A stretch of 64,000 bases of DNA, taken from positions 1,736,001 through 1,800,000 of the forward strand of contig NC_013517.1 of assembly GCF_000024405.1 (NCBI RefSeq), given 5' to 3'. A program made the translations under genes and the position numbers. This document shows positions 17,945 through 29,992 of this stretch, piece after piece. Under the pieces are notes generated by a model. It made no database searches. It saw nothing but the letters and a program-made list of their open reading frames with translations, and was not told the DNA's origin. The stretch is from Sebaldella termitidis ATCC 33386 (GTDB lineage: Bacteria; Fusobacteriota; Fusobacteriia; Fusobacteriales; Leptotrichiaceae). The first letter of the stretch is position 1, and the number at the start of each line of letters is the position of its first letter.

Positions 17945-20900
17945 ATGGTATACACTGAATATAAGGGAAAAAAGCTTAATGAAGATGCAGTAGATTTTTT
18001 TGAAAAATTAGGCTGTCATGAAAGTACGAATAATTACAGACTGTTGAATTCTTACGGATATATGGGGAAATATCAGGTAGGCAGAGATATTATGGAAGAT
18101 TTGAATTGGTACAGTTCAAATACAGGCTACACCGGGGATGCCAGAAAAAAATGGGGTATAAAAAGCAGGGAAGATTTCTTGGGAAATTCGGCCGCACAAG
18201 ATGATTTGATAATGAAATCAATGCTGAAAAGATGGGATTATCTGGATGCATATCTTAAAAAGCATACAAATAAAGGCATTATGGATTATGTATGTAAAGA
18301 AATAACAGTAAGTCCGTCTGCAATATACACAAATACCAGTGGTGCTCCAAAGTATGGAAAAGATCTTTTAAAAGTGCTGAAAAACGGTAAAAATAAAAAA
18401 TTAGGCAATCCCAAAGGAAAGAAGTTTCTTATAACGATATCCGGTCTTCTTGCCGGCAGCCATTTAACCGGTCAGGGAGGAATGGGAATTTTTTTTACAT
18501 CGGAAGGAAGAAAAATTCCCACAGATGGTAACGGTACTATGGTTTTAGTGTATCTGGAAGAATTAAAAGGTCATGATTTATCAATGATATGCGGTCATAA
18601 GGACAACTGTAAGCTGGACAGCAAAGCAGTAATAAAAAACAATTCATTCAAGGATGAGATCATTCTGAATGGGGAAATGAACAAAGGAAGTAATAAGACA
18701 GGTGCTGGGAATACATCATCAAAAACATCTGAAATAGAAGAAAAGGGTATATATGAATTTAAAGGGCAGAAATATGAAGAAGTATGGGAAACCGAATTTT
18801 ACAAACAGGATATGACTGGAAGGAAACAGCTGCCTGCTGCAGGTTATGTAAAAGCAGAGGAAGCTGTGATAAAAAGACTGGAAGAAAAGTTCGTAAATCC
18901 TGATTTATACAGTGGTGACTATATTAAATATGTGGAAAGTAAAACAGGAAAAACAGTTTTTGAAGAAAATAAAGAGGAAATAAACGTAATGCTTACCTTG
19001 TATGATAAAGCTACAGGTACAGGGAAAAAATCAGGAAATATTGTGAGGCAGTACGGATTTGATATATTGAGAGGGCGGAATGAAAAAGCTGAATCACTGA
19101 GAATACAGGATATAGCATATTATATGTATTATTACCCCATTCCCAAAATGGGACAGCTGGAAACACTTGAGTATGTATTTGGGAAATTTGCTGCTAAATA
19201 TATAAAGTTTCCTGATGTTCACTATACTGAAAATAATAAAACAGGTGAATATCAAATTTCACAGATAGCACAATTAATAAAGGATGCGGGGAAGAAACAG
19301 GAAGAACCTGTAATAAAATATAACCTTCCGGAGAAGTATAACAAGTATATGGAAGGAATAAAAGATATAGATGAAATTATCCTGAGAATTCCAAAAAAAT
19401 CAAAGCAGGATTTTCATAAGATGAGAAGTGAAAATTTATTAAGAGGGCTTGAAATGGCAGGAGAGCATAAGAGAAGTTTTTCTGTTGACGAAAACGGTGT
19501 GAGAAAATATCCTTTGACAAGAAGATTTCTGGATAATCTTTTGATAGAGTTCATAAAAGTAGAAACAGGCTTTAAGGAGGAAAAAGAAGAAAAGTATTTT
19601 GACGGGCATAAATATCGTGATAGTAATGTATTGAGGAATTATCTTTTATGGTATGATGAAAATTTTGGAAGAATAGAACTGCCTCATCCGAAAGGAAGCG
19701 GAATGTATGCTGAGCTTGAGAAGCTGGGTAAAGATATGAGAATTACAGCAATGCTTGATATATGGGTAAATTCCAAAGAGAGGGGTAAAATAAAATATAT
19801 AAGAAAAATACATAATCTGATAATTGATAATTATGGGGATTATACAGACGGGAAAACGACAGGTAGGGACAGGGAAATAATAACAGGACACTTTTATGAT
19901 TTGAAAGAATTAAGAGATTATGCGGCAGGAAAAGACTCTATGAATTTATATTCTTTTTACAGGGAATTTTATGATTTGAAAAATGTTATTACACCAAATA
20001 ATGAGTTTTATGTAAATGATAATTGTATTTTGAAATGTACACTCGGAGAAAATATAAGCAGAATAAATGTGGACAGGGATAGTGTAGTTCTCAGGGGAGG
20101 CAGACAGGCTAACATAAAGGATACTAATATACTGCCGTTTAAGAGCTGTAAAGTTTCTTCAGAATGCAAGCCGGAGTTTTCGGAGATTTGGGAAAAAAAT
20201 ACTGATGTGGAGATCGGAGGAGCACCTGCTCTTCTTGATATATCTACAATAAAGTGCAGATACGGCGGGATTATAAGTATAGATGATTCAGGGCAGAGAC
20301 AATCTAGGTCGCAATTAGATTCAAAAGGTAATGATACAAAGCCGGCAGCAGAAGGCAAAAGTCAAAGTTACGGGAAAAACAGCAATTTTTCAGCTTCAGT
20401 TGGAACAGCCAAAACAAATAATATAAATTCCAAGCTCGGAAAAAGAGAGGTAGACTGCGGTTACAGACCTCTTTTGGAAATATGTAGTGCCTTAAACAAA
20501 AATTTTATGCAGACACCGCTGAAAAAGGAGTGTCAGGAATATAAGGGGTATAAAAAGGATCATACAGCCTTGGAAAATGAGAGAAAAAGGCTTGAGAGTT
20601 TAGTAAAGACGGCAGAGAAAGAATTCGTTATACCCGGAAATTATTTGGGTGACAGAATAAAAAGAGAAAATATAAGAAACGCAAAAGAAAAATATGATAA
20701 ATTTATAGAGAAAAATGAGAGAATAGCAATGATAGCTTCAAAAAATTCATCAAACAGCAGAAAGAATCAGCTATTAAGTAAGATTATGCTTGCTATGCTT
20801 GAAGCCAATAAAAAATCAGGAGATATGTCAGTTCCTAAAAAAGACAGTAAAGGAGTTCACAAAAAATATGGAATTTCAGCCTGTGATTATGAGAAAAGAA

Positions 20901-22459
20901 ATTTTTACATTACAGCTACACTTGGAGGTATAGTCTACGGATATTTGAAAGCCGCAATGGGTGAAAAAACAGATGAGAAAACATTGAAAGAAATAGAAAG
21001 AGAAGTTAATGAAAAGGAAGCGGAAGAGAAAAAAGTCAGAAATACTTATCCGAATATCAGATCGGGATTATCAAATTATGAATCATACGATAAAATACAG
21101 TCAAGAGAAGCAGAAAAAAGGCAGGAAATAAAGAGAAAGACTGATGTTCAGACTCTTGATAAAATCGGCTATGAGCTGTATCAGCTGACATCTGAAGTTC
21201 CTACAGGCAGCTCGATACTTGCGAAAATCAGAGAGAAAATAAAACCTGTAACAGAGTGTCCCTTTGAAGAAGTAGAAAGGAAGACGAATCATGGAGAGAG
21301 TTTTTTCGGTCAGGAGACAGGGGAGGCAGAAGCTTCTTTGGGGAAAGGTGATAATTACGAAAATAGTAAATTACGTGATGGTGAGATATCAGCAGCTAGA
21401 AGGACTGACGACAGTCATAATAGATTTGGTACCGGGCGTGTAAGGACTTCAAATGAACATGAGAATTTTAATCGTCAGGGATGGGAGGATAGTAATAACC
21501 ATATGTCTGATACTCCTAGCAGAAAATCTGATATTCATGAAAGTAAAGGAAGGAATTCATCTGATGAAGCAGAAACTCGAATTGATACCGGTTTATATCA
21601 AAATCTGATAGTTGGGAGTGAATTGACAGATATTATTGGTAAAACTGCTATAAATGCAGAAGGAAGCGGGCAGGAAAGCGGTTTGAAAATACCTGATCTT
21701 GAAAATAATACTCAGATAGTAAAACCTGAAAAGAAGGGGAAAAAAGATAAAGCTGCTTGTTTAGAAGATAGATGTCCGAATAGCAGCAAAGGGAGAGATA
21801 TTTTTGTTATCCTGTCTGTCGGGCACGGGATGAAAAATAAAACTACATATGATCCCGGAAGTTCTTCGGAATGGAATAAAAATACTGAAATAACGAATGG
21901 TTTTTTTTATGTTAAGTATTCACCACCTTCATCGGTGAAATATATTGAGAGCCCTTTAATTACAGAGTTTCAAACTAATGATATATTACTTAAGAATTAT
22001 TTGATACCAGCTATGAAAACAAATAATATAAATGGTGATATACTCATATACAGAACAAATGGAATAACTAATCATGCCCAAATGTTAAATAAGAAAGCAA
22101 TAGAACTAAAAAAAGTGTATAGAAAAGTCATAGTTTTAGAATTTCATTTTAATTCAGCAAAATCTGGTGGTAGCGGTACTGAAATGCTTTATCATAGCGG
22201 AGTAAAGCCAACAAAAAAATTAGCAGAGTGTATGCAAGTAGAAATTGTAAAAAAATTAGGATTAAAAGATCGAGGAATAAAGGATTGTAGTAATGGACGT
22301 GGTGGTGGTTTTATGGAAGGAATGCCAAATATACCATCAATAATGTTAGAACCATTTTTTATTTCAACAAAGAGTGATACAAAAACTTTTTTTGAAAAAA
22401 TTCCTGAATATATTGAAGGTATTATGAATGGAATAATAAAATATGATAATGAAACATAA
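17945..22459 (+). CDS. Large DUF4280/PAAR-like effector with lysozyme-like head and amidase tail
   Basis: A 1504-residue protein with no signal peptide. Residues about 13-50 carry a lysozyme-like ES-x(3)-Y...N-x-YGYMGKYQ pattern (Glu26 candidate catalytic residue). A DUF4280 domain, the PAAR-like spike-tip family, occupies about 685-780 (NCILKCTLGE, VVLRGGRQANIKD, KSCKVSSECKPEF, GAPALLDISTIKCRYGG). Charged helical and low-complexity linkers follow at about 860-1280. The C-terminus (about 1285-1504) is an N-acetylmuramoyl-L-alanine amidase of the Amidase_3 type, with SVGHG, a HFNSA histidine and IMLEPFF glutamate at the zinc/catalytic positions. The combination suits a toxin loaded on a contractile spike and delivered to cleave peptidoglycan. 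The last ~700 bp look more AT-rich, suggesting a swapped toxin tip. The next gene is a signal-peptide protein, a candidate immunity factor. Confidence 0.8.
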   Translation: MVYTEYKGKKLNEDAVDFFEKLGCHESTNNYRLLNSYGYMGKYQVGRDIMEDLNWYSSNTGYTGDARKKWGIKSREDFLGNSAAQDDLIMKSMLKRWDYLDAYLKKHTNKGIMDYVCKEITVSPSAIYTNTSGAPKYGKDLLKVLKNGKNKKLGNPKGKKFLITISGLLAGSHLTGQGGMGIFFTSEGRKIPTDGNGTMVLVYLEELKGHDLSMICGHKDNCKLDSKAVIKNNSFKDEIILNGEMNKGSNKTGAGNTSSKTSEIEEKGIYEFKGQKYEEVWETEFYKQDMTGRKQLPAAGYVKAEEAVIKRLEEKFVNPDLYSGDYIKYVESKTGKTVFEENKEEINVMLTLYDKATGTGKKSGNIVRQYGFDILRGRNEKAESLRIQDIAYYMYYYPIPKMGQLETLEYVFGKFAAKYIKFPDVHYTENNKTGEYQISQIAQLIKDAGKKQEEPVIKYNLPEKYNKYMEGIKDIDEIILRIPKKSKQDFHKMRSENLLRGLEMAGEHKRSFSVDENGVRKYPLTRRFLDNLLIEFIKVETGFKEEKEEKYFDGHKYRDSNVLRNYLLWYDENFGRIELPHPKGSGMYAELEKLGKDMRITAMLDIWVNSKERGKIKYIRKIHNLIIDNYGDYTDGKTTGRDREIITGHFYDLKELRDYAAGKDSMNLYSFYREFYDLKNVITPNNEFYVNDNCILKCTLGENISRINVDRDSVVLRGGRQANIKDTNILPFKSCKVSSECKPEFSEIWEKNTDVEIGGAPALLDISTIKCRYGGIISIDDSGQRQSRSQLDSKGNDTKPAAEGKSQSYGKNSNFSASVGTAKTNNINSKLGKREVDCGYRPLLEICSALNKNFMQTPLKKECQEYKGYKKDHTALENERKRLESLVKTAEKEFVIPGNYLGDRIKRENIRNAKEKYDKFIEKNERIAMIASKNSSNSRKNQLLSKIMLAMLEANKKSGDMSVPKKDSKGVHKKYGISACDYEKRNFYITATLGGIVYGYLKAAMGEKTDEKTLKEIEREVNEKEAEEKKVRNTYPNIRSGLSNYESYDKIQSREAEKRQEIKRKTDVQTLDKIGYELYQLTSEVPTGSSILAKIREKIKPVTECPFEEVERKTNHGESFFGQETGEAEASLGKGDNYENSKLRDGEISAARRTDDSHNRFGTGRVRTSNEHENFNRQGWEDSNNHMSDTPSRKSDIHESKGRNSSDEAETRIDTGLYQNLIVGSELTDIIGKTAINAEGSGQESGLKIPDLENNTQIVKPEKKGKKDKAACLEDRCPNSSKGRDIFVILSVGHGMKNKTTYDPGSSSEWNKNTEITNGFFYVKYSPPSSVKYIESPLITEFQTNDILLKNYLIPAMKTNNINGDILIYRTNGITNHAQMLNKKAIELKKVYRKVIVLEFHFNSAKSGGSGTEMLYHSGVKPTKKLAECMQVEIVKKLGLKDRGIKDCSNGRGGGFMEGMPNIPSIMLEPFFISTKSDTKTFFEKIPEYIEGIMNGIIKYDNET

Positions 22460-22477
22460 TATTAAAATTCTAATCTG

Positions 22478-23302
22478 GTGGTGATTACAATAAAAAAAAA
22501 TAATGTTTTGATGATTTTATTTGCAACAATCTTAGTATTTTTTTCTTTTTCAGAAAGTATTGAAAAAGAAAAAAAAATATATATAAAAAAAATAGAAGAC
22601 AAGCTTATTAATGGTGATAAAATTGATTGGAATAATGAAAAAATAGAATTTTACTATTGTGGTTGGGAAGATGTAGATTCTAATGTTTATACAATGCAAT
22701 ATTATTCCCCGGAAATATCAAAAAATAAATTTGAAAGATTAGATGTTGCTGATGGAATCCATCCATTTTTTGTAAGGAAAAGCTACGGAAAGTCTAAAGA
22801 TGGGAGAGATATTATTGCAGATTTTGAACTGACTTCTGATAAAGGAATAATTTTAGTGAGAATTCTTAAGACCTATAATGAAAAATATGTAAATTATGAT
22901 GATTTTGAATTAAAGACTACAGTGTATTCTTTTGAAAGGATGGAAAATTATAAATACCCTGATACTTTTATCATTATAGAAGAATACGAAAATGTACGGA
23001 CAAATCTTGTGAATAGCGAAATAATAGATGAAAGAACACCTTTGAAACCAAAAGGAATTATAAAGGAATACAGTAAAGCCGGTAATTTGACAGCAAAAAT
23101 TTCAAGAATTAAGCCAGAATTTCAAATACATCAAGTATATTTGTCTACAGGGAAATTATATAAAATAGAAACATTTAACGGGGTACATGAAAAGTTGAAA
23201 ACTTTTTGGAAAGAAACTAATTTGATTTCAAGTGAGAGAATAGAAGCTGAGAAGATAGAAAAATATGAGAAAGATTACATATATTTTTTAAAAAATAGAT
23301 AA
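22478..23302 (+). CDS. Candidate periplasmic immunity protein with YwqK/MORN-like segment
   Basis: About 270 residues with an N-terminal hydrophobic signal (NNVLMILFATILVFFSFS) and a soluble remainder. A central stretch, GIIKEYSKAGNLTAKIS then LSTGKLYKIETFNG, has the spacing of the MORN-like YwqK antitoxin family. It starts 18 bp after the amidase-tailed gene, the usual place for an immunity gene. Its exported location would suit protection of the periplasmic cell wall in a Gram-negative cell. The start is uncertain: GTG 22478/22481 lie inside the GGTGGTGATT ribosome-site match, while ATA 22490 is eight bases after it (see findings). Immunity function is inference. Confidence 0.6.
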   Translation: MVITIKKNNVLMILFATILVFFSFSESIEKEKKIYIKKIEDKLINGDKIDWNNEKIEFYYCGWEDVDSNVYTMQYYSPEISKNKFERLDVADGIHPFFVRKSYGKSKDGRDIIADFELTSDKGIILVRILKTYNEKYVNYDDFELKTTVYSFERMENYKYPDTFIIIEEYENVRTNLVNSEIIDERTPLKPKGIIKEYSKAGNLTAKISRIKPEFQIHQVYLSTGKLYKIETFNGVHEKLKTFWKETNLISSERIEAEKIEKYEKDYIYFLKNR

Positions 23303-23561
23303 AAGATTTAATATGAGTTAAAAAATGAAAGAAATTTTATGAACAAATATCTGCTTTTAATATTATTATTTTTACTTTGACAAAATACAGCTACAACATA
23401 AAAGAATCAAAATTAGAAATTTTAGATAAAGTAAATTTAAAAAACTGTTTCTAAAAAAGTATAAAAGAACATAGAAGGGGTCAATAATGAGGTTAATATC
23501 ATAATTATTTATAACAATAAATAATTTGAAAAAGCAGAGATAATAAATAATGGAGGTTAGC

Positions 23562-24683
23562 ATGAGAAAAGTTATTGTGATTTTGCATATTTTACTTTTT
23601 ATGAAAGTATGTTCTGATTTTATATTTAATGATAAAATAATATTAAGAGAAATATATAAGGATAAAAAAATTTATACAGATGTTGAATCAAAAAAATTCA
23701 TTTTGACAAAAAATAAAGAAAAGAGATATAAACGAACACAGATTGCAGATTATAAAATAACAGGAAATAAAATATTTGTTTTGTTAGAATCCAAAGAAGC
23801 AGCTGATAATGGGAAAATTCTTGATTATAATGGAAATATAGGGGGATTTGATTATGCTGTTTTAGAAATATCAAAAGACAAAAATATTATCATGAAAAAA
23901 AGAGGAGAAATCGGAGTTTTTGGTGCAGGGACAGATATTTTTACAGGTAATGGGAATATAAGGTTTATTCCTGTAGGTAAAGAAACTGAAGGTATGGAAA
24001 TAAGCATGAAATTTTCAAAGGATAGTGAGTATACTAATTCAACAGTATTTGAATTTGATCTGGAAAAGAATAATATGAGCCAGCTTTTTTCTGTGGAAGG
24101 ATATTCTTATTGTTCATTTCTATGTGAAATAACAGAAGAAAATTATGAATTCAGTGAAGAGGGAGAAAAAAGGAATTATGATTTAAAGATTGAAAATAAC
24201 TTTTATATTGAAGATACAGGTCTTAAGAATGCAGCTGAAAAAACATTTATTTTCAAAAAAACAATAAAGTATTATGCTTTTGAGAATGGAAAGTATATTT
24301 TAAAAAAAGAGGAGAAGTCACCTAAATATTTATTTTCAAAAAATGATGAAGCTGTTTTAGCTTATTTATATGGTATTCATAATTGGGATACCAATTCACT
24401 CTATGATAAATACTATATTAATCAGGATATGGAAGATTTTACTAAATTGTTTAAAACCATTCCGAAAGTGAAAAAAAATTTGGAAATAAAAACTTATATT
24501 TCGCATATAGAAGACAGAAAAGACGGTCTTTTGGTTACTTTGAAGCATATTTTGCATAAAGAAGAAAATAGTATGGAATTTGATATTGAAAATGTAGAAA
24601 TAATAGAAGAACAAGAGGAAAGAGTATTCTTTAAAAAAGAAGCAAAAAGCAGATGGGTTTTGGACGATATGAAGAAAAATTAA
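23562..24683 (+). CDS. Secreted protein of unknown function (possible second immunity/accessory gene)
   Basis: About 373 residues from ATG 23562, which lies after a GGAGG that overlaps the alternative ATG at 23550. The first 20 residues form a signal peptide. The rest is rich in Lys/Glu with predicted strands, and repeats such as ILDYNGNIGGFDYAVLEISKDK. The C-terminal part resembles a small alpha/beta domain. No family recognised. It stands between the amidase/immunity pair and the baseplate-like genes, and its strongly AT-rich codon use matches the preceding gene rather than the spike gene. It may be another immunity or lipid-interacting accessory. Confidence 0.55.
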   Translation: MRKVIVILHILLFMKVCSDFIFNDKIILREIYKDKKIYTDVESKKFILTKNKEKRYKRTQIADYKITGNKIFVLLESKEAADNGKILDYNGNIGGFDYAVLEISKDKNIIMKKRGEIGVFGAGTDIFTGNGNIRFIPVGKETEGMEISMKFSKDSEYTNSTVFEFDLEKNNMSQLFSVEGYSYCSFLCEITEENYEFSEEGEKRNYDLKIENNFYIEDTGLKNAAEKTFIFKKTIKYYAFENGKYILKKEEKSPKYLFSKNDEAVLAYLYGIHNWDTNSLYDKYYINQDMEDFTKLFKTIPKVKKNLEIKTYISHIEDRKDGLLVTLKHILHKEENSMEFDIENVEIIEEQEERVFFKKEAKSRWVLDDMKKN

Positions 24684-24749
24684 AGTTTTAGTGGATGCTT
24701 ATTTATCAAAATTAAAAGGCACAGATTTTTTGTGAAAGGAGGATTCAAA

Positions 24750-25853
24750 ATAGTAAAAGCATTTATTCAATATATAAAGACACAAAAAGAACTTTTAATC
24801 AATCTGATGAATAAGAAAAAATCAGATAGAGAAAAAGTACTGAATGAAATAAATGATAAAATTGAAAAAATGAATTTAGAAATAAAAATATCAGAGTTAG
24901 ACGACAGAATAGTAATTATCTCAGCTACTCGAGATAAATTTAAAGGGAAAATACTGAACTTATTTCTGATAAAGATATTCGGCGAAGAATACAGAAATAA
25001 TGTATGGGAAATACAGGAAGAATATGAAAATCAAAAATATGCGGAAATAAATAATTTTTTTGATTTATTAGCGAAAAAATATGAAGAGGGGAATAGTGTT
25101 TTTATAGAAGAAATATCAGAGGAAAATTTTGATATTAAAGAGAAGTCAGATCCAGTAAAGCTAATAAAAACAAATAATAACCTGAATGGTAATGCGGAAA
25201 GTACAGGGGAAGCTATAAATTTGAAAACAAAATATGGAAAACAAAAAAATTCTGTATTTAATACAGAGGATGTATTTTTGAAGCATCCTCATAAATATGA
25301 AGAAAATATAGAAGAAATAAATAATAGCAGCCAAAGGGAAAAAATAGACCAAGAAATAAGAAATAATATTAAGAATTTATCTGAGAATAGCTTTTTAGGT
25401 TTTGTGGAATCTGAATTAAAAAATGACATAAATAATAAGTCACAAGAAAATCCACTAGTATTTAACGATATAAAGTTTAAAAAATATGAAAAGCTAAAAA
25501 GAGAAATTGAAATAAAAGAAGAAAAATTGTTGGAATTAATAAACGAAACTAAATTTTTTCTTGAAGAAAAAAAGTTTTACAAAGCAGTTCAAAATGTGAA
25601 TATACTGGCAAAAGCAGATAAATCAGCAGTTTTAAATGAAGAAAGGATAAAATACTCACTGGAGGGGGTTCTTTTGAGAGTAATTAGGTTTTTTGTTCAA
25701 AGAAATATGAAAAATAGTGAATATTGGAGATATTTTACAGACAGATATGAAGAGAAAAGAAAATTTTATAATGATATTGTTAATCTCAGAGAATACTGCG
25801 GACTTAGGTTAAATCTTGAAAATGAAGAATATGAAGTCAAGAGAAGGGACTAA
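24750..25853 (+). CDS. Hypothetical charged protein of the injection island
   Basis: About 368 residues, very rich in Lys, Glu, Asn. There is an N-terminal helical domain (about 1-125), a low-complexity linker (about 130-245) and a C-terminal helical domain (about 255-368) with KAVQNVNILAKADKSAV and EGVLLRVIRFF. A TssA-like adaptor is conceivable but unsupported. The open frame begins with GTG 24732, which overlaps the AGGAGG ribosome site (24737-24742). ATA at 24750 is seven bases after the site, so a non-canonical start is possible. The stop is 61 bp before the next likely start. Function not recognised. Confidence 0.5.
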   Translation: MVKAFIQYIKTQKELLINLMNKKKSDREKVLNEINDKIEKMNLEIKISELDDRIVIISATRDKFKGKILNLFLIKIFGEEYRNNVWEIQEEYENQKYAEINNFFDLLAKKYEEGNSVFIEEISEENFDIKEKSDPVKLIKTNNNLNGNAESTGEAINLKTKYGKQKNSVFNTEDVFLKHPHKYEENIEEINNSSQREKIDQEIRNNIKNLSENSFLGFVESELKNDINNKSQENPLVFNDIKFKKYEKLKREIEIKEEKLLELINETKFFLEEKKFYKAVQNVNILAKADKSAVLNEERIKYSLEGVLLRVIRFFVQRNMKNSEYWRYFTDRYEEKRKFYNDIVNLREYCGLRLNLENEEYEVKRRD

Positions 25854-25914
25854 GAGTGTAAGCAGATCAAATTATTTTCAGAATATAAAAAAATGCGTAA
25901 TAAGGAGGAGGGAA

Positions 25915-27189
25915 TTGAAATATTTTCAGAAGCTTATAGATAATGAATTAAAAGATATGAGTGCAGAAGAGAGGGACACATACAGAAAAACTTCCCTGAT
26001 AACATTTCAGATGCTGGCCGAAGAACTGGAAGACAGAAAAAAAGAGTTTGAACAGAGAATTTTTGATTCAGTGAGAGTAAAAGAAAAAGAAACAATAATA
26101 TATACAGCATTGATTCCGGAAAAAAATTATTATCTGTATGAGGATTTTATGTATCCAATAGTGAAAAAATCTGTTTTGACAGCTGACAGACTGGAGCCGC
26201 TGGCTGATAAAGAAAGAATTTTTAAAACAGTATTTATAAAAAAATCATATTCAGAATTAAAAGAATTAGAGGGTAGAATATTTGAAGCCAACATTGTAGG
26301 AAATAAAAGATATTATGATATAAATGTAAAGCTGGTACCTGATGAAAGATTTATAAAAAAAATGCATGAGCTTTATGATGTATTTGATGTAAACGGGATA
26401 AAATGGAGAACGCTTAACACAGCATATGCAATGAAAATGTATAAAGTAGTTCAGGCAGAGGAAAATCCTGATATGGAATCAGATATTTCAATGTTTGCTG
26501 ATTTTGAGGTTTATGTGGACTTTGAAGAGCTGGAGGGGAGTATTTATGAGGAGCATATGCTTGTATGGAATATAGAGGAAAGAGATATAATAAGTACACA
26601 TCTTGTGAGACCCACAGAAGACAGAATTCACTATGAACATACGATAAAACTGAATAATGAAAAAGGAGTGTATATTTATCCGAGGGAGCATATATTTCTG
26701 AGTTATAAAGAAAAGGAAACGCTGTATGTCATAACAGATAATAAAGAAGGCAGTATTTGGAAAACCTGGATAATCAAAGAAAATATAAATAAAAAAAGAT
26801 TTGAAAATGCAGAATTTCCTCTTTTGAATAATGAAAAAAATTATAATTTCCTGAATTCATTGAGGGCGGAATCTGAAGTAAAAATGAGAAGTGAAGCTGA
26901 AATCAAAAGAATAATAACAAGCTATAAGGCATTGGAAAATAAAATCCTTTATAAAGATTATTATATGACGGATAAAAGGCTGGAGAATACATTGGAATAC
27001 TATGATATGAACAGTTTTTTGACAGATGAATTTAGGCTGAAAGGAAGAGGTGAAAATCTTTATATTTATTTTGAAATAAATAAACGGGATTACCTTACAG
27101 AGGATTTTCTCAGTTTCATAATTTCAGATATCCAGCTTAAGTTTCATGAATATAACTGCATAGGGGTGGAATATGGAAGAACGGTTTAA
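25915..27189 (+). CDS. Baseplate-like structural protein of the injection island
   Basis: About 425 residues from TTG 25915, about six bases after AGGAGGAGG. Upstream in-frame ATGs from 25816 overlap the preceding gene and lack a site. The protein is rich in strands, with many aromatic residues and repeated FVDFEELEG/IYTALIPEKNYYLYEDF segments and no catalytic motif. Its end overlaps the next gene by 17 bp. In anaerobe genomes similar long unannotated proteins stand next to VgrG-like and DUF4280 genes, so I infer a baseplate or wedge role, possibly analogous to TssK/TssF. The assignment rests on context only. Confidence 0.5.
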   Translation: MKYFQKLIDNELKDMSAEERDTYRKTSLITFQMLAEELEDRKKEFEQRIFDSVRVKEKETIIYTALIPEKNYYLYEDFMYPIVKKSVLTADRLEPLADKERIFKTVFIKKSYSELKELEGRIFEANIVGNKRYYDINVKLVPDERFIKKMHELYDVFDVNGIKWRTLNTAYAMKMYKVVQAEENPDMESDISMFADFEVYVDFEELEGSIYEEHMLVWNIEERDIISTHLVRPTEDRIHYEHTIKLNNEKGVYIYPREHIFLSYKEKETLYVITDNKEGSIWKTWIIKENINKKRFENAEFPLLNNEKNYNFLNSLRAESEVKMRSEAEIKRIITSYKALENKILYKDYYMTDKRLENTLEYYDMNSFLTDEFRLKGRGENLYIYFEINKRDYLTEDFLSFIISDIQLKFHEYNCIGVEYGRTV

Positions 27190-27901
27190 TAAAGAAAATT
27201 TTCAGTATATATGGTCTTTGCTGCTGAATGATAACGGTCTGGAAAAAGAGAAAATAAAATTTGTGAAAAGCCGCATGATATCACCTTATTTTGAGCTGAA
27301 CCAGAAAAATATAAATGATGTTATAACAGAAAAAAATAAAAAAGGATATACAATAGAAACTAATCCTTTTTTCAGATTTGATAATATCTACAGTCTTTTA
27401 TTAAATCCAGATGCAGAAGCAGAGGATAAAAATCTAAAGGAAAGTCTTTTGAATATAACTTTGCATTTATTGGGAAATTTTGATTTATATGCGGGACAGA
27501 CAAAAAAAGATTTTTACTGTAAAGAAATAGTGCGCGATATGGAAAGCGGAGCTGTCGGAGAAAAGGTGAGAAATAATCTTTTGTTTTTGAATATGAAAGA
27601 AAAACTTATTATAGCTGAGGTATTTTTAGAATATGACGAAGGCAGAAATCAGATAAAATGTCTGAAGAAAATAGTAAAAAAATTTTTCTCTGAATCTATT
27701 GTGTATGATAATAAGTATTCAGATAAAAATATAGTTATTTATCTGGGGCATAAAAAGGATATTAAAACCAGAAAAATAACGGGAATTATTAATGAACTGT
27801 TTATCCCTCTGGGTCTGAAACCTAAGTATTTCTATGAATATCATTTTGGTGTTTTGGGAATAGGGGAAACATTAGTAATTGGAAATATGGCAGTTTATTG
27901 A
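27173..27901 (+). CDS. TssG/baseplate-like protein
   Basis: A 242-residue protein with GGGGTGG four bases before ATG and a 17-bp overlap with the upstream gene, so the pair is translationally coupled. Its C-terminal end, IGETLVIGNMAVY, recalls the closing GxxxxLG segment of TssG-like baseplate proteins, and an LGNFDLY block sits mid-protein. No enzyme motif. Position between a long structural gene and a small adaptor plus spike gene supports a baseplate component. Similarity to TssG is weak and only by eye. Confidence 0.45.
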   Translation: MEERFNKENFQYIWSLLLNDNGLEKEKIKFVKSRMISPYFELNQKNINDVITEKNKKGYTIETNPFFRFDNIYSLLLNPDAEAEDKNLKESLLNITLHLLGNFDLYAGQTKKDFYCKEIVRDMESGAVGEKVRNNLLFLNMKEKLIIAEVFLEYDEGRNQIKCLKKIVKKFFSESIVYDNKYSDKNIVIYLGHKKDIKTRKITGIINELFIPLGLKPKYFYEYHFGVLGIGETLVIGNMAVY

Positions 27902-27931
27902 TAATAATCTTTATAATACCGGGGTGAAAAA

Positions 27932-28534
27932 ATGAAGTTAAAAATAAGTATATTCAGCAGCAATACTGATGGTGAAAATCAGGATGGGATAATCCTTACT
28001 TTCGATGAAATAATTTCTGTAAAATATAAAACAAGAACAGCAGAATACAGAAATTTTGCAAATACAGACAGTGAAGTGAGAGTAAGAATAAAGGGAAGGA
28101 TGCTTTCAGTACTAAAAGGATCAGATGATGAACCCCTTTTTTCCGGAGTGAGCTCAGCGCTGGAGGAATATAAAAACAATAATTTTGAAAGCAGTACGGA
28201 AGGTCTGAAAAAAGAATATGCAGGGAAGCTGAAGTTTTTGAACGAAAAAGTATTTCAGGGAATTGAAAAATTTGATACTGATAATTTTTATGAACACAAT
28301 AAAAAAAATATTGCGGATCTAACAAAATGGGCACTTGATTATAAAAGCAGCAGTGAATACAAAAATATAATAATGGAAATAAATCTTGGAAATGAAAAAA
28401 CAATGGATCTGCTGTTTGAAAATATGTATGTGGAAAATTTTGAACAGGAATTTGATATAGAAAAGGGAAACGGGGAATTTCTTCTTGAGCTGAAGCAAAA
28501 ATATTACAGCGGTAATAAAATAAGAATAGAATAG
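27932..28534 (+). CDS. Small tail-adaptor-like protein before the spike gene
   Basis: A 200-residue protein. Its N-terminal domain (1-75) has the ILTFDEIISVKY strand pattern. Its C-terminal segment (VENFEQEFDIEKGNGEFLLELKQK) resembles the end of XkdP/LysM-type baseplate proteins, where an E-x-[FYN]-D-x(3)-G segment precedes an ELKE/ELKQ strand. A GGGGTG site precedes ATG, and it leaves nine bases before the spike gene. Such proteins typically bridge the tube and the spike hub. A peptidoglycan-binding LysM domain is not clearly visible, so this is a structural guess from length, position and C-terminal motif. Confidence 0.5.
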   Translation: MKLKISIFSSNTDGENQDGIILTFDEIISVKYKTRTAEYRNFANTDSEVRVRIKGRMLSVLKGSDDEPLFSGVSSALEEYKNNNFESSTEGLKKEYAGKLKFLNEKVFQGIEKFDTDNFYEHNKKNIADLTKWALDYKSSSEYKNIIMEINLGNEKTMDLLFENMYVENFEQEFDIEKGNGEFLLELKQKYYSGNKIRIE

Positions 28535-28543
28535 GGGGTAAAA

Positions 28544-29992
28544 ATGAATTTTGAAAGATATGAAAAAAAGGACCTGACTGTTATACTTAACGAAAATGAG
28601 GTAAAAGGAGGAATGATCAGGGAATTTCTTATGAAAGGGGATATTAACAGACATAAAACTTTGAAATTAAGAATAGAAACTGCTGAAGAAGATGAAGGAG
28701 CGTACAAAGAATTAAATCAGATAAAAGACTGTAAAATAGAAATCTGCATGGATAAAAACAATGGAAATGAAAAAACAGAAAAAGTAATAGTTTTCAGCGG
28801 ATATATAAAAAGATCGCGATATATAAGCTACGGCAGCAGAGGGAGACAATTCGAAGCCGAAGCATATTCAAAAAGTGAAAAAATGGACAGAGAAGAAAAA
28901 TACAGAGTATTTCAGGATATCAGAATGACATTCAGACAGGTAGCCGAGGAATTGCTGAAAGATTATAAAAATGAAAGAATAAATATGTTATTTTCAGAAG
29001 AAGCAGAAATTTCAATAAATGAACTGACAGTGCAGTTTGGTGAAACTGACTGGGAATTTTTGCTGCGTCTGGCTTCACATAAGGGACTGGGAATACTGTC
29101 TGTACACGGAGGAACTCTCACTTTTGGCTTTGTTAATGCCGGAATTGCCAAAAATGAAGATATGAAATATACAGATTATGAAATGATCAGAGAAGATGAA
29201 CAGATGATTTATAAAATTTATTCAACACAGATATTTAATATCGGAGAAAGTGTAAATATAAAAACTCCCGAGGGTGAGAATGAATTTATGATAAAAAGCG
29301 GTAAAACAGAACTGAGACACTCAGTTTTTCTGGGTGAATATGAATTGGTTCACATGGATTATAAAATGAAAAGAATAAGAAATAAAAATATAAAAGGCTG
29401 TGTAATAGAAGGAAAGGTAGAAAAAGTATTTCAAAGAGACAATATAGCTGTTATGCACGTGGAATTTTCCAAGGGACTTGCAAAACTGGGCAAAAGCTAT
29501 GATGATTACGGTTTTGAGAGATATACCATTCCTTATAGTGTTTTTTACAGCACTACTAATACAGGTCTGTTTTGTACACCGGAAATTAATGATACAGTCG
29601 ATGTATTTTTTCCGAATGAGGAAGAAAAATTTGTGCGTGTAAACTGGAGTGTAAATAATACAGGAAGCGGCAGATTCAGTGATCATAGCAAAAGAAACTT
29701 TCATATAAATGAAGGGGATTTTAATATGATAATAGATAGAAATGAAGTAAATGTACTATCGGGAAAATCGTATATGATGAAATCTCCGAATATTACAGAA
29801 GAAGCTGACAAGTTAATACACAGAGGGATACAGAGTTATATTGCAGTGTCTGACGGTATCATGGGGATAGAGGCATTGGAGGATCTGCTTCTTTACGGGA
29901 AAAATCTCGTTCTGAAAGGAAAAGAAGAATCTGTGGTCATTGAATCTAAAGAAGACATCAGATTAAAGGGGGAAAAAATACATAATAACTGA
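28544..29992 (+). CDS. VgrG/gpD-like spike protein with gp5-type OB domain
   Basis: A 482-residue protein with the phage gpD/VgrG order. A gp27-like hub (about 1-250) contains the hallmark FGETDWEFLLRLASHKGLGI, followed by a gp5-like OB domain (about 280-400; CVIEGKVEKVF, TPEINDTVDVFFPNEEEKFVRV). A repeat-like beta segment (about 400-482; INRNEVNVLSGKS, SVVIESKEDIRLKGEK) could form the needle. It is preceded by GGGGGT and followed by a terminator at 30030-30060, so it closes the island. The spike would carry the DUF4280 protein at its tip. No sheath, tube or ClpV gene is in the window, so it must use machinery elsewhere or be a satellite locus. Confidence 0.85.
   Translation: MNFERYEKKDLTVILNENEVKGGMIREFLMKGDINRHKTLKLRIETAEEDEGAYKELNQIKDCKIEICMDKNNGNEKTEKVIVFSGYIKRSRYISYGSRGRQFEAEAYSKSEKMDREEKYRVFQDIRMTFRQVAEELLKDYKNERINMLFSEEAEISINELTVQFGETDWEFLLRLASHKGLGILSVHGGTLTFGFVNAGIAKNEDMKYTDYEMIREDEQMIYKIYSTQIFNIGESVNIKTPEGENEFMIKSGKTELRHSVFLGEYELVHMDYKMKRIRNKNIKGCVIEGKVEKVFQRDNIAVMHVEFSKGLAKLGKSYDDYGFERYTIPYSVFYSTTNTGLFCTPEINDTVDVFFPNEEEKFVRVNWSVNNTGSGRFSDHSKRNFHINEGDFNMIIDRNEVNVLSGKSYMMKSPNITEEADKLIHRGIQSYIAVSDGIMGIEALEDLLLYGKNLVLKGKEESVVIESKEDIRLKGEKIHNN

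What the first reader, a model, noticed from the sequence alone, without database searches (positions are those of the whole stretch)
17945..29992. Orphan contractile-injection island with a two-headed peptidoglycan hydrolase effector
A VgrG/gpD-like spike, a small adaptor-like gene, two baseplate-like genes and a 1504-residue DUF4280 protein lie together without sheath, tube or ATPase genes. The DUF4280 protein carries a lysozyme-like head and an amidase tail, an unusual pair of wall-cleaving activities on one PAAR-like tip. In a diderm anaerobe this suggests a satellite locus that borrows a T6SS- or eCIS-like machine coded elsewhere, or a new variant of such a machine.
Basis: partly seen in the sequence, partly recalled or inferred. 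Interest (0 to 1): 0.78.

Follow-up and report, generated by a model that had tools for sequence, protein, structure and literature searches.

The report
Wall-cutting tip of unnamed injection machine
These genes look like the detached tip and base of a phage-tail-like injection machine whose relatives occur in many Gram-positive bacteria, where papers had guessed at such a machine without finding its body; the tip carries two wall-cutting enzymes, and the second is swapped between relatives.

Summary
The island is real: eight same-strand genes, including a 1504-residue DUF4280 (PAAR-like) protein with a tail-lysozyme-like head and an Amidase_3 tail, two exported proteins, a gene whose predicted fold best matches T6SS TssF and phage baseplate wedges, its constant partner, a tube-like gene and a gpD/VgrG spike. 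It is not a satellite of a classical T6SS or eCIS. A core operon about 440 kb away codes a 720-residue protein whose N-terminus aligns with the T6SS sheath subunit TssB (E 3e-5; far above 200 shuffles), a tube-like protein, DnaJ, an Hsp70-like protein, FHA, PP2C and kinase genes. In some Leptotrichiaceae and Fusobacteriaceae, island and core are contiguous. The core also occurs in Paenibacillus, Brevibacillus, Lysinibacillus and Clostridium, beside VgrG and DUF4280 genes: probably the 'unknown phage-like translocation system' a 2021 survey speculated about. The DUF4280 protein behaves as a polymorphic toxin: a largely constant delivery part plus exchanged tails (amidase, VanY/M15, CHAP, DUF5675). 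Sheath and tube identity rest on remote similarity and gene order; the sheath model failed to fold, and the tube-like proteins match no known tube. Nothing has been tested at the bench.

The parts
17945..22459 (+). 1504-aa tip effector: lysozyme-like head, DUF4280 PAAR-like point, long linker, amidase tail
   Evidence: 15 long homologues conserve residues 1 or 222 to about 1116-1146, only one (L163) also the tail
17984..18220 (+). tail-lysozyme-like head
   Evidence: phrog_27932 E 1.6e-8, also in 5 of 7 homologous heads scanned; no Pfam or PDB sequence match
20018..20296 (+). DUF4280 (PAAR-like) domain
   Evidence: Pfam E 6.9e-15, over cut-off
21758..21781 (+). C-x-CPN junction motif in front of the exchanged tail
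   Evidence: motif in 15 of 16 proteins; found by eye first
21803..22438 (+). N-acetylmuramoyl-L-alanine amidase tail
   Evidence: Amidase_3 E 6.4e-12 (profile positions 56-173 of 174), phrog_435 endolysin E 7.1e-22, PDB amidase 4rn7 E 8.9e-7; catalytic H/E/H/E seen by eye, motif recalled
22478..23302 (+). 274-aa protein with N-terminal hydrophobic segment, candidate immunity
   Evidence: hydrophobic segment 2-29; homologue only beside the other amidase-tailed effector, L163
23550..24683 (+). 377-aa protein with N-terminal hydrophobic segment, candidate immunity or accessory
   Evidence: hydrophobic segment 3-27; homologue only in L163
24732..25853 (+). 373-aa protein of unknown role
   Evidence: no family; homologue in L163 and a weak paralogue at 498584-500218
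25816..27189 (+). baseplate wedge protein, TssF/gp6-like
   Evidence: AlphaFold pLDDT 72.5; best structural match 6n38_I Z 8.3, 333 aligned, rmsd 7.3; no sequence-profile match to TssF
27173..27901 (+). 242-aa partner of the wedge, presumed baseplate
   Evidence: homologues in 60 of 80 core loci, next to the wedge in the maps printed; no match to TssG or PDB
27932..28534 (+). tube-like protein, paralogue of the 145-aa core protein
   Evidence: phmmer E 2.8e-10, hhalign 98.8-99%; no match to Hcp or phage tubes
28544..29992 (+). gpD/VgrG spike
   Evidence: Phage_GPD E 7e-12, TIGR03361 E 4.6e-9 below cut-off; family against E. coli VgrG 85.9%

Best explanation
The island is the baseplate, spike and tip module of a contractile injection machine of Fusobacteriota and Firmicutes. 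Shown: homology of the module, its conserved gene order, its genomic companions, the exchange of effector tails. Inferred: assembly and firing. The 720-aa protein coded at 1,308 kb is most likely a single-chain sheath (TssB-like N-terminus, then a TssC-sized remainder). It would assemble round a tube of the 145/200-aa proteins on a baseplate containing 25816-27189 and probably 27173-27901; VgrG (28544-29992) would form the spike and DUF4280 its point. On contraction the tip would pierce a neighbour's envelope, helped by the lysozyme-like head, and deliver the amidase tail, which cleaves stem peptides from glycan. One or both exported proteins (22478-23302, 23550-24683) would protect sister cells. 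DnaJ and the Hsp70-like protein may do the remodelling that ClpV does in T6SS; FHA, PP2C and kinase would regulate firing, as in some T6SSs (recalled).
For: Wedge: all five of the 50 shown matches with more than 200 aligned residues are contractile-tail baseplates, best T6SS TssF complex Z 8.3. Sheath: first 250 residues of the 720-aa family against TssB, probability 73, E 3.1e-5, score 38.8; best of 200 column shuffles 22.1, reversed 13.6; TssB against 15 other families E 0.08 or more. Spike and tip. Co-occurrence in 98 Fusobacteriota genomes: 720-aa 34, DUF4280 34, both 31; wedge 30, 28 with 720-aa. Firmicutes: 23 of 24 core-bearing genomes searched have DUF4280; VgrG in 13 of 14 fetched stretches. 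Contiguity of island and core in L151-L152 and L177. Tail exchange.
Against: The 720-aa model failed (pLDDT 36) and its C-terminal two thirds match neither TssC nor phage sheaths. The reciprocal TssB run is weaker (E 8.5e-4), and the match came after about 180 profile pairs. The tube-like family matches no known tube. Foldseek alone found nothing for the wedge at E 0.001, and Z 8.3 with rmsd 7.3 is borderline. G089 has the island but no detected 720-aa gene (290 contigs). The Hsp70-like label rests on motifs seen by eye and weak matches (E 0.036). Fisher p values ignore kinship. No experiment exists.
Confidence: 0.75

Rival explanations
1. A satellite or orphan spike island that borrows a classical T6SS or eCIS coded elsewhere in the genome.
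For: The island lacks a sheath gene. G089 has the island and no detected 720-aa gene. Two prophage-like regions with sheath-type genes exist.
Against: No VipB match and no ClpV over cut-off in the genome. The PF04984 sheath lies in a prophage-like region. Relatives have island and core contiguous.
Confidence: 0.08
2. The 720-aa/145-aa operon is not a contractile tail but some other secretion or scaffold complex (a non-contractile delivery system) that uses VgrG/DUF4280 spikes.
For: Neither core protein matches a sheath or tube over its length; the Hsp70-like/DnaJ/kinase setting is unusual; no ClpV.
Against: TssB-like N-terminus, wedge fold and gpD spike with PAAR-like tip, which elsewhere serve contractile tails (recalled).
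Confidence: 0.14
3. The two-headed hydrolase is mainly a wall-piercing tool of the machine, like phage tail lysozyme, rather than an antibacterial toxin with immunity.
For: The head matches a phage tail lysozyme. Of 10 other tails scanned, 6 have wall-enzyme families (5 CHAP, 1 VanY) and 4 DUF5675; no cytoplasmic toxin family was seen.
Against: Tails differ between relatives, and homologues of the two exported neighbours were found with the other amidase tail but not around the 14 other effectors, which is usual for effector-immunity pairs (recalled).
Confidence: 0.25

Closest known systems
Type VI secretion system (T6SS)
   Same: VgrG/gpD spike, PAAR-like DUF4280 tip, TssF-like wedge fold, TssB-like N-terminus of the sheath candidate, FHA/PP2C/kinase genes
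   Different: One 720-aa chain instead of a TssB plus TssC pair; TssC profile and ClpV over cut-off absent; Hsp70-like and DnaJ genes in the operon; occurs in Firmicutes; tube matches no Hcp
Extracellular contractile injection systems and contractile phage tails
   Same: General parts list: spike, tip, wedge, presumed sheath and tube
   Different: The 720-aa family has no match in 50,697 phage or 72,556 plasmid records and no profile match to phage sheaths
Unknown phage-like translocation system of Gram-positive bacteria (speculated in PMC8651086, passages read, and PMC5349215, whole text read)
   Same: Phage_GPD next to DUF4280 in Firmicutes without T6SS or eCIS genes
   Different: Those texts name no sheath, tube, baseplate or operon; this report proposes one
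Polymorphic toxins with PAAR delivery; T4-type tail lysozyme (recalled)
   Same: Largely constant delivery part, exchanged C-terminal enzyme, adjacent candidate immunity genes; lysozyme-like domain at the tip
   Different: A wall hydrolase at each end; tails identified so far are wall enzymes or DUF5675, behind a C-x-CP[HN] motif

Membership tests
Type VI secretion system | TssC/VipB large sheath subunit (PF05943) | tested here: not met
   0 matches in the own genome; rings in E. coli control
Type VI secretion system | TssB-type small sheath subunit | tested here: inconclusive
   no separate TssB was sought by family; N-terminus of the 720-aa protein aligns with TssB, E 3.1e-5, reciprocal 8.5e-4
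Type VI secretion system | ClpV ATPase (TIGR03345) | tested here: not met
   best match 806 bits, below cut-off 885, as in other genomes without T6SS; over cut-off in 1 of 14 controls
Type VI secretion system | VgrG spike | tested here: met
   Phage_GPD over cut-off; family against E. coli VgrG hhalign 85.9%; VgrG models themselves below cut-off
Type VI secretion system | PAAR or PAAR-like tip | tested here: met
   DUF4280 over cut-off; PAAR-like role from PMC5349215
Type VI secretion system | TssF/gp6-type wedge | tested here: met
   fold only, borderline: Z 8.3 over 333 residues, rmsd 7.3; sequence profile no
Type VI secretion system | Hcp tube | tested here: inconclusive
   tube-like family against Hcp: E 0.07 and worse; PF05638 not searched
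Type VI secretion system | TssJLM membrane complex | not tested
   no search was run; HlyD-like and membrane proteins lie at the end of the core operon
Extracellular contractile injection system | Phage-type sheath (PF04984) belonging to the cluster | tested here: not met
   the one match, at 1,509 kb, is in a prophage-like region
Extracellular contractile injection system | AAA+ ATPase in the cluster | not tested
   no search for this family was run
Polymorphic toxin | constant N-terminal part, variable C-terminal enzyme | tested here: met
   15 long homologues; 10 tails scanned: 5 CHAP, 4 DUF5675, 1 VanY; window tail Amidase_3
Polymorphic toxin | adjacent cognate immunity gene | tested here: inconclusive
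   exported neighbours co-vary with the amidase tail in the stretches seen; no functional test
Amidase_3 N-acetylmuramoyl-L-alanine amidase | family profile | tested here: met
   46.3 bits against cut-off 27; activity not testable here

The most novel reading that the evidence does not exclude
A separate lineage of contractile injection systems in Gram-positive bacteria and Fusobacteriota, with a single-chain TssB-TssC-like sheath recycled by a dedicated DnaJ/Hsp70-like pair instead of ClpV. One sheath gene serves several interchangeable baseplate-spike-tip modules (in this genome one 720-aa gene against five tube-like genes, four intact wedge genes, at least seven spikes and eleven DUF4280 places), with tips that carry a wall hydrolase at each end.
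Probability: 0.35. Interest if true: 0.93.

Novelty: new variant of a known kind. Interest (0 to 1): 0.8.

Why it matters
[quoted passage not shown] A defined, conserved gene set with a sheath candidate makes that directly testable by gene deletion and cryo-tomography. If right, contact-dependent contractile injection would extend across many Firmicutes and Leptotrichia, possibly with a different way to recycle the sheath, and the exchanged wall-hydrolase tails with their candidate immunity proteins would be a new set of antibacterial effectors.

Tried and rejected
Sequence searches of the 720-aa, 145-aa, wedge and 242-aa families against PDB sequences gave nothing credible; two parvovirus NS1 hits (E 0.0026 and 0.0035, about 39 residues) were taken as chance. 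The 720-aa protein was folded from 24 similar sequences and failed (pLDDT 36), so no fold search was made with it. Foldseek with the wedge model found nothing at E 0.001 or less in PDB and BFVD. hhalign against phage sheaths and tubes (55 pairs) and single E. coli T6SS proteins (88 pairs) gave only the expected w200-tube and VgrG-VgrG matches; low values without other support were w242-tube E 0.018 and Hsp70-like-TssG E 0.023. Adding five T6SS loci gave the TssB match (36 pairs): the whole 720-aa protein E 2e-4, the only value under 0.05 in that panel apart from a control pair. So it is the best new match of about 180 pairs; the shuffle control was run on the N-terminal cut chosen afterwards. 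PADLOC gave nothing. Weak below-cut-off matches left aside: DUF1948 for 27173-27901 (E 0.0038), baseplate-wedge phrog_7145 for 27932-28534 (E 0.077). No 720-aa match in plasmids or phages. Dropped ideas: island unique to this genome (L163); amidase tail a fixed part.

Papers searched: (Sebaldella + contractile injection; Paenibacillus + Lysinibacillus + contractile injection system; contractile injection + Gram-positive + Paenibacillus + VgrG) returned 0 papers; some searches returned lists in which no title or shown start of abstract describes this operon. Preprints and most subscription papers are not held, so an earlier description cannot be excluded.
Full report
WHAT IS THERE. The window is G000:C1:1736001-1800000 of a 4.49-Mb genome in three contigs. 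Eight genes lie head to tail on the + strand between 17945 and 29992, with gaps of 48 bases or less or small overlaps, except 247 bases after the second gene. Pfam recognises, over cut-off, only the first and the last: DUF4280 and Amidase_3 in the 1504-aa protein, Phage_GPD in the 482-aa protein. PHROGs adds a tail-lysozyme match in the head.

THE MIDDLE GENES. 25816-27189 was folded with 22 relatives (pLDDT 72.5). Its best structural match is the T6SS TssK-TssF-TssG baseplate complex, Z 8.3 over 333 residues at rmsd 7.3; of the 50 rows shown, all five with more than 200 aligned residues are contractile-tail baseplates (6n38, 5hx2, 9vzk, 9f4a, 9ay5). Z 8.3 is borderline by the tool's own note, and Foldseek alone had nothing at E 0.001 or less. 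27173-27901 follows it in the relatives whose maps were printed, where both were found; its own identity is open. 27932-28534 is a paralogue of a 145-aa protein of the core operon (E 2.8e-10; hhalign 98.8-99%).

THE REST OF THE MACHINE. At 1,308-1,331 kb of the same chromosome lie a 720-aa protein, the 145-aa protein, a 259-aa protein, DnaJ, two FHA proteins, a PP2C protein, a kinase, a 926-aa Hsp70-like protein, a VgrG-type spike, a DUF4280 protein, a HlyD-like protein and membrane proteins. A cluster at 458-467 kb has two more wedge-like genes, a homologue of the 242-aa gene, a second Hsp70-like gene, a spike and a tip. The genome has one 720-aa gene, five tube-like genes (six matches at five places), four intact wedge genes and one broken, and 11 DUF4280 places, one with a stop inside; seven VgrG-type genes lie in the stretches I fetched, the window's included. 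There is no VipB match. The one PF04984 sheath lies among prophage-like genes (judged by eye). The only strong ClpV match is under the cut-off.

DISTRIBUTION. The 720-aa protein is found in 34 of 98 Fusobacteriota genomes, two of them fragments only (G050, G076). In the bacterial genome collection 352 stretches encode a relative; the best 80 were kept and are mostly Paenibacillus, Brevibacillus and Lysinibacillus, with two Leptotrichia, one Fusobacteriaceae MAG, Clostridium and others. In those 80 loci phmmer found the 145-aa protein in 65, the wedge in 70, the 242-aa protein in 60, the Hsp70-like protein in 56, the two FHA proteins in 60 and 60, the kinase in 68, DnaJ in 52 and the 259-aa protein in only 3. 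Some loci are cut by contig ends and my ORF filter loses genes in GC-rich ones, so these are lower bounds. Of 25 such genomes asked, 24 are held and 23 have DUF4280; 0 of 14 named control genomes do. Of 14 stretches fetched round DUF4280 or just past the core, 13 hold a VgrG-type gene. For 13 of the 24 genomes, picked because tip and core share a contig, the nearest tip lies 13.9-20.1 kb from the 720-aa gene, 12 of them within 16.2 kb.

CO-OCCURRENCE. DUF4280 occurs in 34 of the 98 Fusobacteriota genomes, 31 of them with the 720-aa protein. 720-aa without DUF4280: G076 (broken), G083, G046. DUF4280 without 720-aa: G089, G068, G053. The wedge family occurs in 30, 28 with the 720-aa protein. Fisher p is 1e-18 and 2e-16, overstated because the genomes are related. 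G089, of the window's own genus, has all eight island genes in order between the same neighbour genes (L163) but no detected 720-aa gene in a 290-contig assembly, and two tube-like matches of the longer type only: an assembly gap or a real orphan.

CONTIGUITY IN RELATIVES. In one Leptotrichiaceae genome (L151-L152) the order is effector, exported protein, wedge, 242-aa, tube-like, spike, two small ORFs, 720-aa, tube-like, DnaJ, FHA, FHA, PP2C, kinase, Hsp70-like. In five further Leptotrichiaceae stretches (L167, L168, L169, L172, L173) the same type of effector lies upstream of the 720-aa gene, with one 194-195-aa ORF between in four and none in L167. In Fusobacteriaceae (L177) Hsp70-like, wedge, 242-aa, tube-like, spike and DUF4280 genes form one run with a few unlabelled ORFs between. 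In other Leptotrichiaceae the wedge module is away from the 720-aa gene, as in the window's genome (L174; coordinates). So the island is a part of a machine that is one cluster in some relatives and split in others.

IS THE 720-AA PROTEIN A SHEATH? Its first 250 residues align with TssB (six T6SS loci) at probability 73, E 3.1e-5, score 38.8; the best of 200 column-shuffled TssB alignments scores 22.1, the reversed one 13.6; the reciprocal run gives E 8.5e-4. TssB against 15 other families gives E 0.08 or more. The remaining residues (240-720) are about as long as TssC but show no similarity to it; TssC against phage sheaths, a true relationship (recalled), fails in the same way, so this says little. 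The AlphaFold model failed. I put a sheath role at about 0.8; a tube role for the 145-aa protein rests on gene order and size only.

THE TIP EFFECTOR. Fifteen homologues of 1280-1508 aa align with the window protein from residue 1 (12), 6 (1) or 222 (2) to about 1116-1146; only the one in L163 continues through the amidase tail (71% identity to residue 1483). Ten other tails were scanned with Pfam: five CHAP, four DUF5675, one VanY/Peptidase_M15; of the four not scanned, two (L150, L170) look VanY-like and two (L171, L175) DUF5675-like by eye. A C-x-CP[HN] motif precedes the tail in 15 of 16 proteins. Heads: phrog_27932 in the window protein and 5 of 7 homologous heads, one of them weakly (E 0.0033); the other two (L151, L174) match phrog_181 endolysin (E 9.3e-39 and 6e-32). 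Against a clean reading: blastp joins the 14 non-Sebaldella tails into one cluster, probably through the shared linker, so the exchange rests on the Pfam assignments; and DUF5675 as a wall enzyme is a guess from one weak Tlde1 match (E 0.093).

IMMUNITY. The 274- and 377-aa proteins each have one N-terminal hydrophobic segment (a simple hydropathy script). Homologues were found beside the other amidase-tailed effector (L163) and not in the stretches round the 14 other effectors.

LITERATURE. [quoted passage not shown] PMC5349215 (whole text read) raises the same possibility from DUF4280. PMC4431377 (passages and one section): CDC123-like genes in T6SS toxin loci; Sebaldella termitidis among its sequences. 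PMC8213781 (passages): eCIS-linked toxins from some Firmicutes, one Paenibacillus included, so classical eCISs also occur in this phylum. PMC11566945 (passages): haloarchaeal Cis11 is closest to Bacillota relatives. PMC9230969 and PMC3482391 (passages) name neither Sebaldella nor Leptotrichia as far as searched (Sebaldella only in the latter). None of the passages seen describes this operon.

VERDICT. A real and conserved module, best filed as a new variant of contractile injection systems. It fails two tested T6SS features (TssC profile, ClpV over cut-off) and meets spike, tip and, by fold, wedge features. It probably works like a T6SS; the mechanism is inference.

Noticed in passing
G000:C1:466000-500000 (L021, L022), same genome: An array of many small paralogous genes between two spike/tip clusters, some repeats looking like HINT-type toxin fragments with possible immunity genes (read by eye).
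   Followed up: no
L026:12818-14173 and L026:14198-15106 (genome 1327818-1330106): HlyD-like and membrane proteins at the end of the core operon, with homologues after the Hsp70-like gene in two other Leptotrichiaceae: possible envelope anchor or diderm-specific addition.
   Followed up: partly
G076:C1:1178572-1178904: Fragments of the 720-aa and 145-aa genes with stops inside: a decayed core in a genome without DUF4280.
   Followed up: no
L153-L154 (G063), between the wedge and 145-aa genes: A tandem series of near-identical N-terminal segments ('MERGNVKDLEFLVLADLAYERY...'), each alternating with a lipoprotein-like gene: looks like an effector-immunity cassette array (by eye).
   Followed up: no
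G000:C1:2678542-2678793 (L006) and G000:C1:506264-506938: A DUF4280 frame with an in-frame stop and a wedge-like stretch with five stops: decayed spare modules.
   Followed up: no
G053 (DUF4280 at C4, C58, C107): A Fusobacteriaceae genome with four DUF4280 places but no detected 720-aa, wedge or tube-like gene: a possible true orphan set.
   Followed up: no
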